Positions 47,094 through 52,428 are shown, counted from the stretch's first letter. The stretch is DNA of 52,428 nucleotides from Candidatus Gastranaerophilales bacterium (GCA_944325515.1 CALVAO010000015.1:1-52428), one strand, 5' to 3'. The notes: generated from the letters alone by a model not told the origin. Program-made: numbers and translations.

Positions 47094-47756
47094 TTAGAAA
47101 GTTAAATTTTTTACTTGAACAGGAGGTATGAAACCTAATTTCAATTTTTTGGAATTTAATCTGTCAACCAGAATTTTTAATTTTTGTTCTATACCAAAAT
47201 CCACACTGTCAGAAGATTCTACTTTCTGAACCATTTCTAATATACCTGCTTTATCCTCCGGTTCAAATTTATCTAAATCAGCGTTTCTTACAATTGTTGA
47301 AATTGTTTTTTTAATGCCTTCTACAAAGTTTGTGTGCTGTTCTTCAGTCAATATACCGGGTTTAGGAGCAAATTTTTTCATTCTGTTTGCACAAATAAGT
47401 GTCATAACAGGGTCTTTTAGTTCATCCAGATTTTGTAATTCTTCTCTAAGCTTTTTACTGTCTGCCCTACATTCAGCAGAAAGATGTTTTCTTAAATCTT
47501 TTGCTGTTTTATTATCGCCAAAAAATTCCATAATATTATGTTCGGAAGCGTTTTGAATAGCACAGGTAAACTGGGAGAGAAAACCTGCGACCTTCGTGCT
47601 GACAGGATTGTCCAGCTCCGGATATGTCATGATATCTATGAGTTTTTCTTCCAGATACTGCCGCCTTAACTCTTTTAAACGTGCCAGCGCGCGCATCTCT
47701 GCTTCACGATGTTCATTAGATTTAAAACTTATTAAATTTGTTCTATTTATTATCAT
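47094..47756 (-). CDS. Unknown helical protein, last of the AAA+ gene unit
   Basis: A 220-residue, charged, all-helical protein with no recognised domain. It starts with NRTNLISFKSNEHREAE, sharing a Phe-Lys motif near residue 11 with other proteins of this unit. No signal peptide or membrane helix is seen. AAGG lies nine bases before the ATG. It lies 40 bases after the 327-residue gene on the same strand. The function is unknown. Confidence 0.6.
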   Translation of the reverse strand: MIINRTNLISFKSNEHREAEMRALARLKELRRQYLEEKLIDIMTYPELDNPVSTKVAGFLSQFTCAIQNASEHNIMEFFGDNKTAKDLRKHLSAECRADSKKLREELQNLDELKDPVMTLICANRMKKFAPKPGILTEEQHTNFVEGIKKTISTIVRNADLDKFEPEDKAGILEMVQKVESSDSVDFGIEQKLKILVDRLNSKKLKLGFIPPVQVKNLTF

Positions 47757-47796
47757 TTTTGACGCCTTCTTTGTAGAGAATAATCTATCAATATGA

Positions 47797-48780
47797 TCAT
47801 CTGTATTTGTGCATTAATTCATAAATATCAGCTTCCAACAAGCCTTCTTTTAAAAATCTCGGACAGAATTCTCTTATTATAAAATTTCTGCTGCAATTTT
47901 TTGCTGCATAATCCAGCATTTCTTTGGCAAGTTCTATTTGTTGTTTACAAAATGGAGAGTGCATTTCTTCAATTGCAGCATCAAGAGCTGCAGGAGATTC
48001 CTTTTTAAGAGCTTCGATTTGATGTGTAAATTTTATATTTAACATTCTGGCATAACGTTTTACTTGTTCATCTATAATAAATTCGTATGCAGAATCTAAT
48101 TCTTGACGATAAGGGAATTCAAAATCTTTTACAAGTTTTAAACCTTGTAGATTCTCGGCGTTCAATATTTTTTCAAGAATTGAAATCCCGTGTTCATCTC
48201 TCTGATTATAGTTAATATTTTTCACATTACTCAATATTTCAATTATTTTATTATATTCACTTTGATTATCTTTATTCGGGATGATATCAAAAAATTTGGT
48301 TAACAGCGAATTACCTTTTTCATCTATTTTGTAGTCAAAACATGAGCCGTCATATAAATCATTCCTAATTGCTTTATCTTGAAGAATTGCCAAAAACTCT
48401 GAAGTGTTAGTTTTTTTCTTCTTAAGCAAAGTTGTTAACGCAAAAATTCCAATTCCGCCGAATAAACCGCCTGCAGTTAATGCAGCTCCGAGAGCCGTTG
48501 TAAGAGCTCCGGTTATTGCTGCATAGTAAGCTCCCATAGCGCCTGTGAACATCCCGCAAGCACCGCTTAAACAGCCTTTTAAAAGTGTAATGATAGAAGT
48601 TTTATCATCCATTATATTTACATCTGGTCTTTGTAATTTATCTATTTTTTTGAGGAGAGAATTATTATTCATAAAAATCTCGTGGATATTACGACAGCTT
48701 TTAGGTAATTTCGGATGTGTATGCCAACCTTGAAACGTTTGATGATTATTTGATACTGTTTGTACAGGTGAAATTTTCAT
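47797..48780 (-). CDS. Unknown protein with Gly/Ala-rich membrane segment and ankyrin-like repeat
   Basis: A 327-residue protein. The N-terminus has NNHQTFQGWHTHP. Residues 65-120 are a Gly/Ala-rich hydrophobic segment (GAYYAAITGALTTALGAALTAGG and GLFGGIGIFALTTLL), probably two membrane helices. At about 190-225, NYNQRDEHGISILEKIL looks like an ankyrin unit. The last 50 residues (IELAKEMLDYAAKN...LKEGLLEAD) match the C-terminus of the 74-residue neighbour. The start has AGGAGA upstream and overlaps that neighbour by four bases (ATGA). Confidence 0.6.
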   Translation of the reverse strand: MKISPVQTVSNNHQTFQGWHTHPKLPKSCRNIHEIFMNNNSLLKKIDKLQRPDVNIMDDKTSIITLLKGCLSGACGMFTGAMGAYYAAITGALTTALGAALTAGGLFGGIGIFALTTLLKKKKTNTSEFLAILQDKAIRNDLYDGSCFDYKIDEKGNSLLTKFFDIIPNKDNQSEYNKIIEILSNVKNINYNQRDEHGISILEKILNAENLQGLKLVKDFEFPYRQELDSAYEFIIDEQVKRYARMLNIKFTHQIEALKKESPAALDAAIEEMHSPFCKQQIELAKEMLDYAAKNCSRNFIIREFCPRFLKEGLLEADIYELMHKYR

Positions 48781-49001
48781 TCGTATCTCCTTTCTTCAGA
48801 AATTAATCCTGCCTTCTGTAATTTAGGGTACAAAACACTGTACTTGAAGTTGTTTGCTGCAGCTTCAAGCATTTCTTTTATTACAAGTTCTTTTTTCCAG
48901 AAAAGAAGATCCTGCGTAAAAGGCATTTCTTGACGAGGTTTTTTCTTTATGTGTAAACCCTTAAAATTTGTATTATTCGGCTGTATTTGTTGAACTTTCA
49001 T
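48777..49001 (-). CDS. Small unknown protein with Phe-centred N-terminal motif
   Basis: A 74-residue protein: an N-terminal motif NNTNFKGLHIKKK, then one helical domain (ELVIKEMLEAAANN...LQKAGLISEE). This domain resembles the C-terminus of the 327-residue protein downstream, so it looks like a mini-paralog. AAAGG precedes the ATG, and the stop overlaps the next start by four bases. It lies 46 bases after the AAA+ gene. Confidence 0.65.
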   Translation of the reverse strand: MKVQQIQPNNTNFKGLHIKKKPRQEMPFTQDLLFWKKELVIKEMLEAAANNFKYSVLYPKLQKAGLISEERRYE

Positions 49002-49047
49002 TTTTACCTTTCAAGTTGAATTGGTTATAGAAAATTATGGTTTGTAT

Positions 49048-52000
49048 CTAAACAATTACTTTATTTTTTTGTATAAAATTTTGTAAAATTGTATCAAAAT
49101 TCAAATTTTTGCGTTGTTTTACCGCCTGTGTAATTGTTTTATCTATGATATCTGCAATATTTCCGATTGACAAGCCTTCTGTTTGTTTTGCCAGCTGTGC
49201 ATAATGCGTTTCATCAAGATAGTCATCTATAATCGGCAGGTTACTCAGCAATTTTTCAATAAGGTTTGTTCTTGATTGATAATCCGGATTACCGCAATGA
49301 ATAATTGTTCCCATTCTTCTGGGGTTGCCTATGATTTCCGCATTAACCAGATCAATATGGTTTGTTGCGGCAATCAGTATTAAACCGCCTGCTGCTGCAG
49401 TGTTCATAAGTTCTTTGTATGTATTTACTTCTTCGACTTGATGTCTGTCAGCATAGCGCGGGAAAAACTTTTCAGCTTCATCAAAGAATAACATTACAGG
49501 TTTCTTAATTATTTTAGATTCCAGCTTGAGTCTTTCAAATATATCTGTTACATTTCTTGCAACTCCGTGAATATATTCATTTCCTGTTTGATTATAATTC
49601 ATTTTATACAAAGGAATGTTCATCTGTCTTGCAAGAGTTTCTACAATGGTGGTCTTGCCTGTTCCAGGGGGACCTTCGAGAATAACTCCGCCGGGCAGGC
49701 TTCTTCTGTTTGTGATTAATGCCTGCCTTACTTCCGGACGCCAGATATCAATAATATTCTCTTCCAGTGCTTTTTTTACATCTTCCATACCGCCGAGTTC
49801 ATCAAGGGATTTGAAATCCCAGTCATTGTATTCGTGTTGTTTAAGCCCTGCTTTATTACAAAATTCTCCCATCTGGCGGTTTGTAAAGTCTTCAAAACAC
49901 TCTTTTATACATTCGCTAAAGTCTTTACCGGATAATATTGCCGCTCTTTTAGCGTCAGTAAGTACTGAAACTATTGTTGACATCGAAGTTCCGTCAAATT
50001 TTTTTGCGATTTTTTCTAAAATTTCTTGATTATTAACCAGATTTTCCGTAAACGGAGTTTTTGCAAGTTCTTTTTTAATAACATCTATTCGGGCTTCATG
50101 GTCCGGATTTGAGAATGCAATCCAGTTTCCGAGCCTTCCCCGTCTTCTGAGAGCAGGGTCAATTCCTTCTAAATCATTTGTTGCGGCAATCAGAATATAA
50201 CCTTTTGAAGACGGATTATTAAATTCCTGCAATAAAGTATCGGTTACTTCCTGTTTATGACTTGCCGTATTTTCTCCACGGGCTTCTCCCATTGAATCAA
50301 ATTCATCAAAGAACCAGACAGACATTTCTCCTGTTGCGGCGAATTTATCATTAAGCTGTTTTGCCATTTCTCTTATTCTGCGGCTTACTTCGTGAATATA
50401 AGGACTTGCCACATCCGAAAGTTTTGTTTCGTAGAAAGGAAGCTTAAGCTCTCTTGCCAGAACTTTAGCCGTTAGAGTTTTACCGTTTCCTGCAGGACCG
50501 TAAAAAATAGCACCGTCCGGAATTGCGCTGCTTCCGAGATTTTCTTTTAATTTATCAAGATTAGCGAACGGCTCGATATAAAGTTTTTTTAATTTTTCTT
50601 TGATTTCCGGCATACCGCCTAAATCATCAAGTTTCATTATCTCATCCTGTGTGACGGGAACACGCTTAAATTGCGGAGTGTCATACATTGTAGTTTTGTT
50701 AAAATCGTCAACCGGATTTATGCCTGCAGCTTTCGTAAAATCTGCAAGTTTTTTTCTTAAATCATCCGGATCGATTATATATTTTTGGTTGGAAACAGAT
50801 GTTCTTGCACATTCTTCCAGTACATTTTCAATGTCAGCATAGCTGAAACCTTCGGTCTTTTCTGCTATTTCTTCTAACATCTCCGGCGTATTCAGATTCT
50901 TGAATAAGTATTTATCTTTGTAGTATTCAGTCAGATATTGTTTTCTTTCATCCATATCCGGCATTTTTAGTTCAAGAACTTTGTCAAAAACGCCCTGTTT
51001 TAAAAATTTGTTATCAACACTGCATTTTTCATCTGCAGTACCGATTAGAAAAGCTCCTTTTGCACTGCAGTTTTCTATTTCCAGAAGGAAATTCTTTTTG
51101 TCTAAATCACAGTGCGGACCTGTTGTAAAGAATTTATCAAAACCGCGCATTAAAATTATTGTCTTTTTCCCGCTTTTTTTGTATTCCGTTTCTACATCAT
51201 TAAGCATTGCTTTCAATTCTTGCGGATTGTACAGCTGTAAAACAGGCATTTTTGTTTCGTTAGCAAAAGCTTTAACAAGGTTAAGAACATCCTGTCCCGT
51301 TTCAATTAAAACACCGTTGGGAATATCAATGTCATTAGCTTTTAAAGTTGCTTTTGCGGCTTCTTCATTGAGAGGAATGATAATGTTTCCTCTTAAATTC
51401 TCTTTAATTTTTTCCATTCCGATAATATTGTCGAGTGATTGAGGTGCGCCGGAAACAGTGTCTAAAACCGCATAATTTTTGTATGATGCGGGAAGCTTGT
51501 ATTCCTCTTTTTCGGCAGATTTATTTATGGTTTGCGCTTCATCAGCAATTTCTTCTTTAATTTCTTCATAATCTGCAACGGGTATTTCTTCTTCTTTTAG
51601 TATAATCTGATTGTTGTTATTCTCTTCCGGCTTTGTGACTTCTTTTGCAACATCTTCTGTATCATCTATTTCATCAAAAGCATCAAAGTAATTAGGTTTA
51701 GGAGTTTCTATCTCTTGCTTTGGCTGCATTTCTGAAGGTGTAACTCTAATCGGCTCTGACATATAGACTTTTGATGCTATAACTTTTGCGTCTTCTGCTT
51801 CGCGGGGTTTTGGAACTTCCGGCTGCTGAAAAATTCCTAATTCTGCTGCATATTTTCCGCCTCTTTGACGTAAGAGATTTTTCATCTCTTCACTTACAGC
51901 ATAATCGAGCGGTGTTTTTCCGTTCGGGGCAAAGTTTATAATTTCGCTTCGCATCCCCGGCTTTGCGGTTAAATAATTTACCAGAGTTTTATAATCATTT

Positions 52001-52176
52001 TGAACAATCAATTGAAAAAGACTATCTTTATTTTTATTAACTGAATTTGGTGTTAACTGTCCTTTTCTGGCACTATCCAGAAGCTCTTTTTCTTGCGGGA
52101 AATCCATATCTTGAGCTTTGAAAGATAATGTATTATAAAACAATTTAGGTGAATTAGGGGTGATATATTTATGCAT
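49048..52176 (-). CDS. Triple AAA+ domain protein with ankyrin-like N-terminus
   Basis: A 1042-residue protein. The N-terminus contains LFYNTLSFKAQ, then ankyrin-like repeats at about 40-110 (PNGKTPLDYAVSEEMKNLL) and an acidic linker to about 230. A first AAA+ module (about 245-500) begins LDNIIGMEKIKENL but has GVLIETGQDVL in place of Walker A, so it probably does not bind ATP. The second module (about 525-780) has Walker A YGPAGNGKT near 560 and FFDEFDSMGEARG; the third (about 800-1035) has EGPPGTGKTT near 838 and LFFDEAEKFF. Both active modules resemble CDC48/FtsH-type unfoldases. No protease or membrane domain is seen. GGAG precedes the ATG. It heads the four-gene unit. Confidence 0.88.
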   Translation of the reverse strand: MHKYITPNSPKLFYNTLSFKAQDMDFPQEKELLDSARKGQLTPNSVNKNKDSLFQLIVQNDYKTLVNYLTAKPGMRSEIINFAPNGKTPLDYAVSEEMKNLLRQRGGKYAAELGIFQQPEVPKPREAEDAKVIASKVYMSEPIRVTPSEMQPKQEIETPKPNYFDAFDEIDDTEDVAKEVTKPEENNNNQIILKEEEIPVADYEEIKEEIADEAQTINKSAEKEEYKLPASYKNYAVLDTVSGAPQSLDNIIGMEKIKENLRGNIIIPLNEEAAKATLKANDIDIPNGVLIETGQDVLNLVKAFANETKMPVLQLYNPQELKAMLNDVETEYKKSGKKTIILMRGFDKFFTTGPHCDLDKKNFLLEIENCSAKGAFLIGTADEKCSVDNKFLKQGVFDKVLELKMPDMDERKQYLTEYYKDKYLFKNLNTPEMLEEIAEKTEGFSYADIENVLEECARTSVSNQKYIIDPDDLRKKLADFTKAAGINPVDDFNKTTMYDTPQFKRVPVTQDEIMKLDDLGGMPEIKEKLKKLYIEPFANLDKLKENLGSSAIPDGAIFYGPAGNGKTLTAKVLARELKLPFYETKLSDVASPYIHEVSRRIREMAKQLNDKFAATGEMSVWFFDEFDSMGEARGENTASHKQEVTDTLLQEFNNPSSKGYILIAATNDLEGIDPALRRRGRLGNWIAFSNPDHEARIDVIKKELAKTPFTENLVNNQEILEKIAKKFDGTSMSTIVSVLTDAKRAAILSGKDFSECIKECFEDFTNRQMGEFCNKAGLKQHEYNDWDFKSLDELGGMEDVKKALEENIIDIWRPEVRQALITNRRSLPGGVILEGPPGTGKTTIVETLARQMNIPLYKMNYNQTGNEYIHGVARNVTDIFERLKLESKIIKKPVMLFFDEAEKFFPRYADRHQVEEVNTYKELMNTAAAGGLILIAATNHIDLVNAEIIGNPRRMGTIIHCGNPDYQSRTNLIEKLLSNLPIIDDYLDETHYAQLAKQTEGLSIGNIADIIDKTITQAVKQRKNLNFDTILQNFIQKNKVIV

Positions 52177-52295
52177 GTTTCTCCGTGGGAATTTTAACTG
52201 GTAATTTTACTGCATGAAAAACCGTAAATAAATATTTTGCCGATTTAAGCAAAATATAGCGGTATAGTTTTACAAAAATTTACAATCTAATAATG

Positions 52296-52334
52296 GGCGC
52301 ATTCAAGAAGCAAGTTAATAATGTTGAATGTGCC
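52296..52334. other. Inverted repeat upstream of the AAA+ gene
   Basis: GGCGCATTCAA (52296-52306) and TTGAATGTGCC (52324-52334) are inverted copies with one G-T mismatch and a 17-base loop, in the gap between the AAA+ gene and the right window edge. The function is unknown. Confidence 0.35.
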
Positions 52335-52387
52335 GAGAAATTTTTGTAACAAAATGTAACTAAAAATAAAAAAAGCGATATTCCTTG

Positions 52388-52416
52388 TTAAACATGTGGC
52401 ATATATAAAGTATAAT
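52388..52416 (+). promoter_or_regulatory. Promoter for a gene beyond the right edge
   Basis: TTAAAC and TATAAT separated by 17 bases, followed by AAAGG at 52421-52425, point rightwards out of the window. A rightward gene probably starts just past the edge. Confidence 0.5.
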
Positions 52417-52428
52417 GAACAAAGGATA

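What the first reader, a model, noticed from the sequence alone, without database searches (positions are those of the whole stretch)
47094..52176. Four-gene unit led by a three-module AAA+ protein
Seen: one 1042-residue protein has an ankyrin-like part, one AAA+ module lacking Walker A and two intact modules, followed by three co-directional unknown genes. Two of these share a C-terminal domain, one has ankyrin-like and membrane segments, and all four carry a similar N-terminal motif. Three AAA+ modules in one bacterial chain are unusual. Inference: an unfoldase or remodelling machine with dedicated partners, perhaps acting at a membrane or on a host or prey cell.
Basis: partly seen in the sequence, partly recalled or inferred. 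Interest (0 to 1): 0.78.

Follow-up and report, generated by a model that had tools for sequence, protein, structure and literature searches.

The report
Triple-AAA and ankyrin gene unit, tagged
A gut bacterium related to cyanobacteria carries a conserved, variable-length gene unit that makes an ATP-driven protein machine with three motor modules plus ankyrin-like partner proteins, all with the same short front-end address tag, which also marks dozens of other proteins in the genome and may send them out of the cell.

Summary
The 1042-aa protein has three classic-AAA modules; module 1 lacks Walker A and Walker B in every aligned relative, modules 2 and 3 are intact. The window lies in a Gastranaerophilales genome. 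Neighbours are conserved: AAA gene first, then a variable array of p327-type proteins (hydrophobic segment plus ankyrin-like domain), then p220, in relatives down to about 30% identity in another genus. In a 241-genome scan the four genomes with this AAA protein are the ones with a whole p220, 6-8 kb apart or less; a fifth has remnants of both. p74 is an internally deleted p327-type remnant, so the unit is not strictly four genes. The shared N-terminal motif (M-x-Ile, polar stretch, F[KQGN][GAS]) is not random, but not unit-specific: it marks about 3-5% of proteins elsewhere in the genome (44/844 starts against 0.8% at internal Met). It resembles described type III secretion signals (Ile-3 bias). 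The order keeps a second FlhA/FliF apparatus, even where the flagellum is gone. Best reading: an accessory, fast-evolving remodelling-ATPase cassette whose parts share one targeting tag, probably for export. Export is inferred, not shown. Phage defence is unlikely.

The parts
49048..52176 (-). Three-module AAA protein (1042 aa), first gene of the unit
   Evidence: ORF; PF00004 x3; orthologues 47-71% identical in 8 loci and 29-32% (module 1) in G153, G074, G163
52114..52176 (-). N-terminal tag of the AAA protein (MHKYITPNSPKLFYNTLSFKA)
   Evidence: F-K/R/T block kept in orthologues while the stretch before it varies in length and sequence
51802..52119 (-). Ankyrin-like N-terminal region (residues 20-125)
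   Evidence: Ank_2 E 6e-4, below cut-off; same in L051 1.5e-4, L098 3e-4
50737..51441 (-). AAA module 1 (residues 246-480), no Walker A or Walker B
   Evidence: own clade in module tree, 100/99
49867..50649 (-). AAA module 2 (residues 510-770), GPAGNGKT, FFDEFDS, RRRGR
49087..49824 (-). AAA module 3 (residues 785-1030), GPPGTGKT, FFDEAEK, NPRRMG
48777..49001 (-). p74: internally deleted p327-type remnant (tag plus C-terminal end only)
   Evidence: N and C parts each match p327-type proteins, 200 shuffles
47797..48780 (-). p327: tag, hydrophobic segment (residues 63-119), ankyrin-like C-terminal domain; member of the variable array
48424..48594 (-). Hydrophobic Gly/Ala-rich segment of p327
   Evidence: sequence and hydropathy; most genus relatives have one or two such segments at the same place
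47094..47756 (-). p220: tagged, all-helical protein, last gene of the unit
   Evidence: 59-82% identical in 6 genus relatives, 35-37% in G153, G074, G163; helical model, low confidence

Best explanation
The unit is an accessory, fast-diversifying cassette built around a Cdc48-like remodelling ATPase. SHOWN: the AAA protein keeps one dead and two intact AAA modules across the genus-level family; it is inherited together with p220 and a variable array of p327-type proteins; all carry the same N-terminal tag; the tag is used by many other proteins of the genome. INFERRED: the AAA chains form a hexamer of three stacked rings, with modules 2 and 3 driving ATP-powered threading and module 1 a structural or docking ring; p220 is a helical adaptor for the ATPase; the p327-type proteins are the variable, target-binding part that anchors in a membrane by its hydrophobic segment and presents an ankyrin-like surface. 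INFERRED, weaker: the tag is a targeting peptide that takes all of them to one place, most likely out of the cytoplasm through the second flagellar-type (type III) export apparatus that the order retains, so that the machine works in or on another cell.
For: Conserved unit: AAA - array - p220 order in the complete genus loci and in G153, G074, G163; in 241 genomes the AAA protein and a whole p220 occur in the same four, with remnants of both in G202. Array length 0-4 between AAA and p220, and four more upstream of AAA in L053. Tag: 44/844 start sites vs 29/3624 internal Met, p 4e-15, shuffles mean 12; with the F-block alone, Ile at position 3 in 15/25 vs 70/594, p 4e-8. Described type III signals favour Ile at position 3 (PMC2668754). 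Two FlhA and two FliF in nearly all of 37 genomes, only the second set in G034, which also lacks flagellin, and FlhA2 without FlhA1 in 14 further genomes of the family; no VirB4 over cut-off. Tagged proteins include a DSP-type phosphatase, CheR methyltransferase, glycosyltransferase, acyltransferase-like protein and 5'-nucleotidases. 5'-nucleotidases shown from other families mostly have Sec signals, those of this family mostly do not and several bear the tag.
Against: No secretion, interaction or activity data. The tag is not seen at the same density in every FlhA2-bearing genome: G040 showed no F[KRGQ] tag in 200 kb, only a few FNG variants, and G034 few. The second apparatus looks flagellar-basal-body-like (rod, FliF, FliH, FlhA), with no needle or translocator genes identified. 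An exported 1042-aa ATPase would be unusual. One tagged protein is an ordinary-looking glycosyltransferase.
Confidence: 0.4

Rival explanations
1. Internal envelope-remodelling complex: the tag is a docking peptide for a site inside the cell (inner membrane, pole, or another scaffold); the p327 hydrophobic segment sits in the bacterium's own membrane and the AAA ring extracts or remodels proteins there.
For: Hydrophobic segments in most genus p327-type proteins; Cdc48/AFG2-like modules; a family of single-module AAA proteins of about 500 aa with similar N-termini sits in most genomes of the order; tagged glycosyltransferase.
Against: Tag resembles type III signals in Ile-3 bias; the corresponding array proteins of G153, G074 and G163 show no hydrophobic segment; sporadic distribution and fast array turnover are unusual for a housekeeping envelope machine.
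Confidence: 0.35
2. The N-terminal tag is a recognition element for the AAA protein itself, a degron or adaptor peptide that delivers many cell proteins for unfolding.
For: Tag on many unrelated proteins and on the AAA family's own members.
Against: This triple AAA is absent from most genomes (strong match in 4 of 241) while tagged proteins occur in relatives without it; no protease gene in the unit.
Confidence: 0.1
3. Phage or plasmid defence system of the AAA type (IetAS-like), with a diversifying array as sensor.
For: PADLOC IetA models match the AAA modules (E 8e-62); accessory, variable locus.
Against: The matches are generic AAA similarity; no IetS protease, nuclease or other known effector nearby; neighbouring genes look like housekeeping genes (aroB, recA, glnA); all members bear the genome-wide tag.
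Confidence: 0.06

Closest known systems
Cdc48/VCP and AFG2 (classic AAA, two-module unfoldases)
   Same: Classic AAA modules with AAA_lid_3; best PDB sequence matches of the family profile (E 5e-53)
   Different: Three modules with a dead first one; ankyrin-like N-terminal region instead of the Cdc48 N-domain; N-terminal tag; scores far below the CDC48 family cut-off (192.8 vs 802.65 bits)
Gankyrin/Nas6 with a proteasomal AAA subunit
   Same: Ankyrin protein paired with an AAA ATPase; appears among the fold matches of p327
   Different: No sequence relation; fold match weak (E 0.05-0.5); no proteasome here; analogy only
Type III secreted effectors
   Same: Polar, acid-poor N-terminus with Ile at position 3; ankyrin and modifying-enzyme contents; clustered and variable
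   Different: A clear downstream F[KQGN][GAS] block that type III signals are not described to have; secretion untested; apparatus is flagellar-type
IetAS anti-phage system
   Same: Classic AAA ATPase
   Different: No IetS protease; three modules; tag; context not defensive
Second locus type in other genera (L100-L106, L109, L113)
   Same: Mostly tagged AAA protein with two or three Walker A motifs, N-terminal ankyrin-like part in some, then a protein of about 1000 aa (ankyrin repeats shown in L100)
   Different: Different third and fourth genes (about 355 and 650 aa, the latter AAA-like); modules only partly group with those of this unit

Membership tests
Classic AAA ATPases (PF00004) | Walker A, Walker B, arginine-finger region, AAA lid | tested here: met
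   PF00004 E 1.3e-53 with 3 stretches, AAA_lid_3 E 4.5e-9; motifs conserved in modules 2 and 3; module 1 degenerate
CDC48 family (TIGR01243) | Score above curated cut-off, two modules | tested here: not met
   192.8 bits vs cut-off 802.65; three modules and ankyrin-like N-terminus
FtsH / proteasome-activating ATPases | Score above cut-off; protease domain or proteasome partner | tested here: not met
   Generic AAA scores far below cut-offs; no protease domain among Pfam matches
IetAS defence | IetA ATPase with adjacent IetS subtilase | tested here: not met
   IetA models hit only through AAA modules; no IetS among the neighbours scanned
Ankyrin-repeat proteins (p327 type) | Ankyrin helix-turn-helix repeats | tested here: inconclusive
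   p327 has no Pfam ankyrin hit; its model matches ankyrin proteins at E 0.03-0.5, prob up to 0.99; array proteins L098 and L097 pass the Ank_2 cut-off
Type III secreted effectors | N-terminal compositional signal (Ile-3, polar, acid-poor) | tested here: met
Type III secreted effectors | Secretion depends on the export apparatus | not testable with these tools
   needs an experiment
Type III / flagellar export | FlhA/SctV gate and FliF/SctJ ring in the genome | tested here: met
   Two sets; FliPQR- and FlhB-like genes recognised by eye beside FlhA1
Injectisome-type type III system | Needle, translocator and secretin genes | not tested
   Only the second FliF-FlhA cluster was read and it looks flagellar-type

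The most novel reading that the evidence does not exclude
Gastranaerophilales use a previously undescribed two-block N-terminal signal (M-x-I ... F[KQGN][GAS]) to send tens of proteins per genome out of the cell through a second, non-motility flagellar-type export apparatus, and this unit delivers a complete three-ring AAA remodelling machine with ankyrin-like adaptors into another cell.
Probability: 0.22. Interest if true: 0.88.

Novelty: new variant of a known kind. Interest (0 to 1): 0.62.

Why it matters
If the tag is an export signal, it opens the unknown secretome of a common but uncultured gut lineage and gives a non-motility role to a retained flagellar-type apparatus. Even if it is not, it is an undescribed genome-wide protein address in an order close to Cyanobacteria, and the unit is a natural set of three- and four-module AAA proteins with dead and live modules in which ring division of labour can be studied.

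Tried and rejected
Phage defence: PADLOC gave only generic AAA hits. Type IV secretion: no VirB4 above cut-off in 37 genomes. p220 fold: model pLDDT 66, no PDB match at E below 1, so its function stays open. p327 Pfam hit to thiol-activated cytolysin C-terminus (E 0.06) rejected: far below cut-off and the model is ankyrin-like. RNA elements: none. Promoter/terminator scan: close to shuffles, not used. A first, looser tag search was too permissive (2-3% background) and was replaced. The idea that the tag is a flagellar filament signal was weakened: family members without FlhA1 still show tagged proteins. Radical-SAM-like neighbour (alignment A4): considered part of the unit, but in the own genome it lies on another contig beside a glutamine synthetase-like gene, so it is listed as associated only. 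Literature: nothing found on this unit, this tag, or ankyrin proteins of these bacteria; papers report flagella, pili and a missing type I system.

Full report
WHAT IS THERE. The window is the whole contig C15 of a 2.1-Mb genome; close relatives are named Candidatus Gastranaerophilales. The four minus-strand ORFs are as reported. The 1042-aa protein contains three classic AAA modules (PF00004, three stretches). Module 1 (246-480) has neither Walker A nor Walker B in any of the nine aligned family members; modules 2 and 3 keep the Walker A, Walker B and an RR-G arginine-finger region. In the distant G153/G074 proteins the strict Walker A pattern is met only in module 3. In a tree of 73 modules, modules 1, 2 and 3 of this family each form one group (support 100/99, 86/80, 100/98), including the distant copies in genus g24 and (modules 2 and 3) in G163, so the three-module layout is old and inherited, not a recent fusion. 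The profile's best PDB matches are Cdc48/VCP and AFG2, but the protein scores far below the CDC48 family cut-off.

NEIGHBOURS. Eleven relatives of the AAA protein were found in named genome contigs. In the loci complete enough to judge, the order is AAA, then zero to four p327-type genes, then p220. p220 is the steadiest partner (59-82% identity). In 241 genomes of the order, module 1 found this AAA protein strongly in G000, G153, G074 and G163 only (E below 1e-30); a p220 profile found a whole p220 in the same four, plus a fragment in G202 and a weak, probably chance hit in G112. In G153 and G074, at about 30% identity and in another genus, the order is still AAA - two large proteins - p220; in G163 the AAA gene is interrupted by a stop but the order is kept. 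G202 has an AAA gene that has lost its middle third together with a truncated p220, and L059 shows broken copies of both: the two decay together. These genomes are related, so the counts are not independent events. p327-type proteins diverge fast (16-33% identity to p327), turn over in number and also stand upstream of AAA in L053. p74 consists of the tag and the last 38 residues of such a protein: an internally deleted remnant.

PROTEIN ANATOMY. p327: tag, hydrophobic Gly/Ala-rich segment, then a confidently modelled helical domain (pLDDT above 90 for 150 residues) whose listed PDB matches are almost all ankyrin proteins though E-values are weak (0.03-0.5); array proteins in G163 and G074 pass the Pfam ankyrin cut-off. 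The AAA N-terminus is ankyrin-like below cut-off. p220 is predicted all-helical with low confidence and no fold match.

THE N-TERMINAL TAG. All four proteins start with a polar, acid-poor stretch ending in F[KQ][AGS]. In orthologues the F-block is kept while the stretch before it changes in sequence and length: in ten p220 proteins the F and the S two residues on are invariant and the spacer grows by up to 14 residues. The tag is not unit-specific. In 0.9 Mb of the own genome outside the unit, 44 of 844 ORF starts match against 29 of 3624 internal Met positions (p 4e-15) and 12 in shuffles. Asking only for the F-block, Ile at position 3 appears in 15 of 25 tagged against 70 of 594 other proteins (p 4e-8), with Ser-4, Pro-5 and Asn-7/8 also enriched: two separate blocks co-occur. 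I estimate 40-70 tagged proteins per genome (inference from the sample). Tagged proteins include AAA and ankyrin proteins, a DSP-type phosphatase, a CheR-type methyltransferase, a family 2 glycosyltransferase, an acyltransferase-like protein and 5'-nucleotidases. In other orders sampled (G257, G284, G270, G298) no convincing tag was seen; in G040 of the same family a few FNG variants appear.

WHERE MIGHT THE TAG LEAD. Described type III secretion signals favour Ile at position 3, Asn at 5 and Ser/Gly at 8 (PMC2668754). Nearly all 37 genomes hold two full FlhA/SctV gates and two FliF/SctJ rings, plus a stand-alone FlhA C-terminal-domain protein of about 495 aa. G034 has no flagellin match and only the second set, and the 14 other family members drawn have FlhA2 but not FlhA1, so the second apparatus outlives the flagellum. 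Earlier papers noted incomplete flagellar gene sets in many gut members (PMC3787301, PMC4040986). VirB4 is absent. 5'-nucleotidases, usually exported enzymes, have a Sec-like signal in 13 of the 15 other-family proteins read, while those of this family mostly lack one and several bear the tag; they may be different subfamilies, so this is suggestive only. Against: tag density does not follow the second apparatus in every genome, and nothing shows export.

VERDICT. Solid: a conserved, accessory AAA-ankyrin cassette with p220, in which p74 is a remnant, and a real, genome-wide N-terminal tag. Inferred: a remodelling machine with p220 as adaptor and p327-type proteins as variable target binders. 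Open: the destination of the tag, with type III-type export the leading but unproven reading.

Noticed in passing
L100-L106, L109, L113 (for example L101:5173-14533): A second conserved operon in other genera: AAA protein with two or three Walker A motifs, mostly tagged, then a 980-1070-aa protein (ankyrin repeats shown in L100), an about 355-aa and an about 650-aa AAA-like protein.
   Followed up: partly
L099:7159-11205: A tagged protein of 1348 aa with four Walker A motifs in one chain.
   Followed up: partly
L120:157-1638 (G000:C10): Stand-alone FlhA C-terminal domain in a protein of about 495 aa, one copy in most genomes of the order and mostly missing outside it.
   Followed up: partly
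L125:7182-17380 (G034), L123, L142 and L038: Second flagellar-type cluster (rod proteins, FliF, FliH, FlhA) kept in a genome without a flagellin match.
   Followed up: partly
L118:6544-8529: A tag-like 661-aa ORF of unknown family sits on the opposite strand between flhA-like and flhB-like genes.
   Followed up: no
L039:1386-2576; L049, L051, L054-L057, L096-L098: Protein of about 390 aa with an invariant RGCxxxCxxC (radical-SAM-like) motif, next to p220 in many loci but beside a glutamine synthetase-like gene on another contig in the own genome. No Pfam family above cut-off.
   Followed up: partly
   Followed up: no
L037:3635-6860: Two tandem 5'-nucleotidase paralogues without Sec signal, with tag-like N-termini.
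   Followed up: partly
window 52177-52428: The contig ends 252 bp upstream of the AAA gene, so upstream members of the array, as in L053, may be missing.
   Followed up: no
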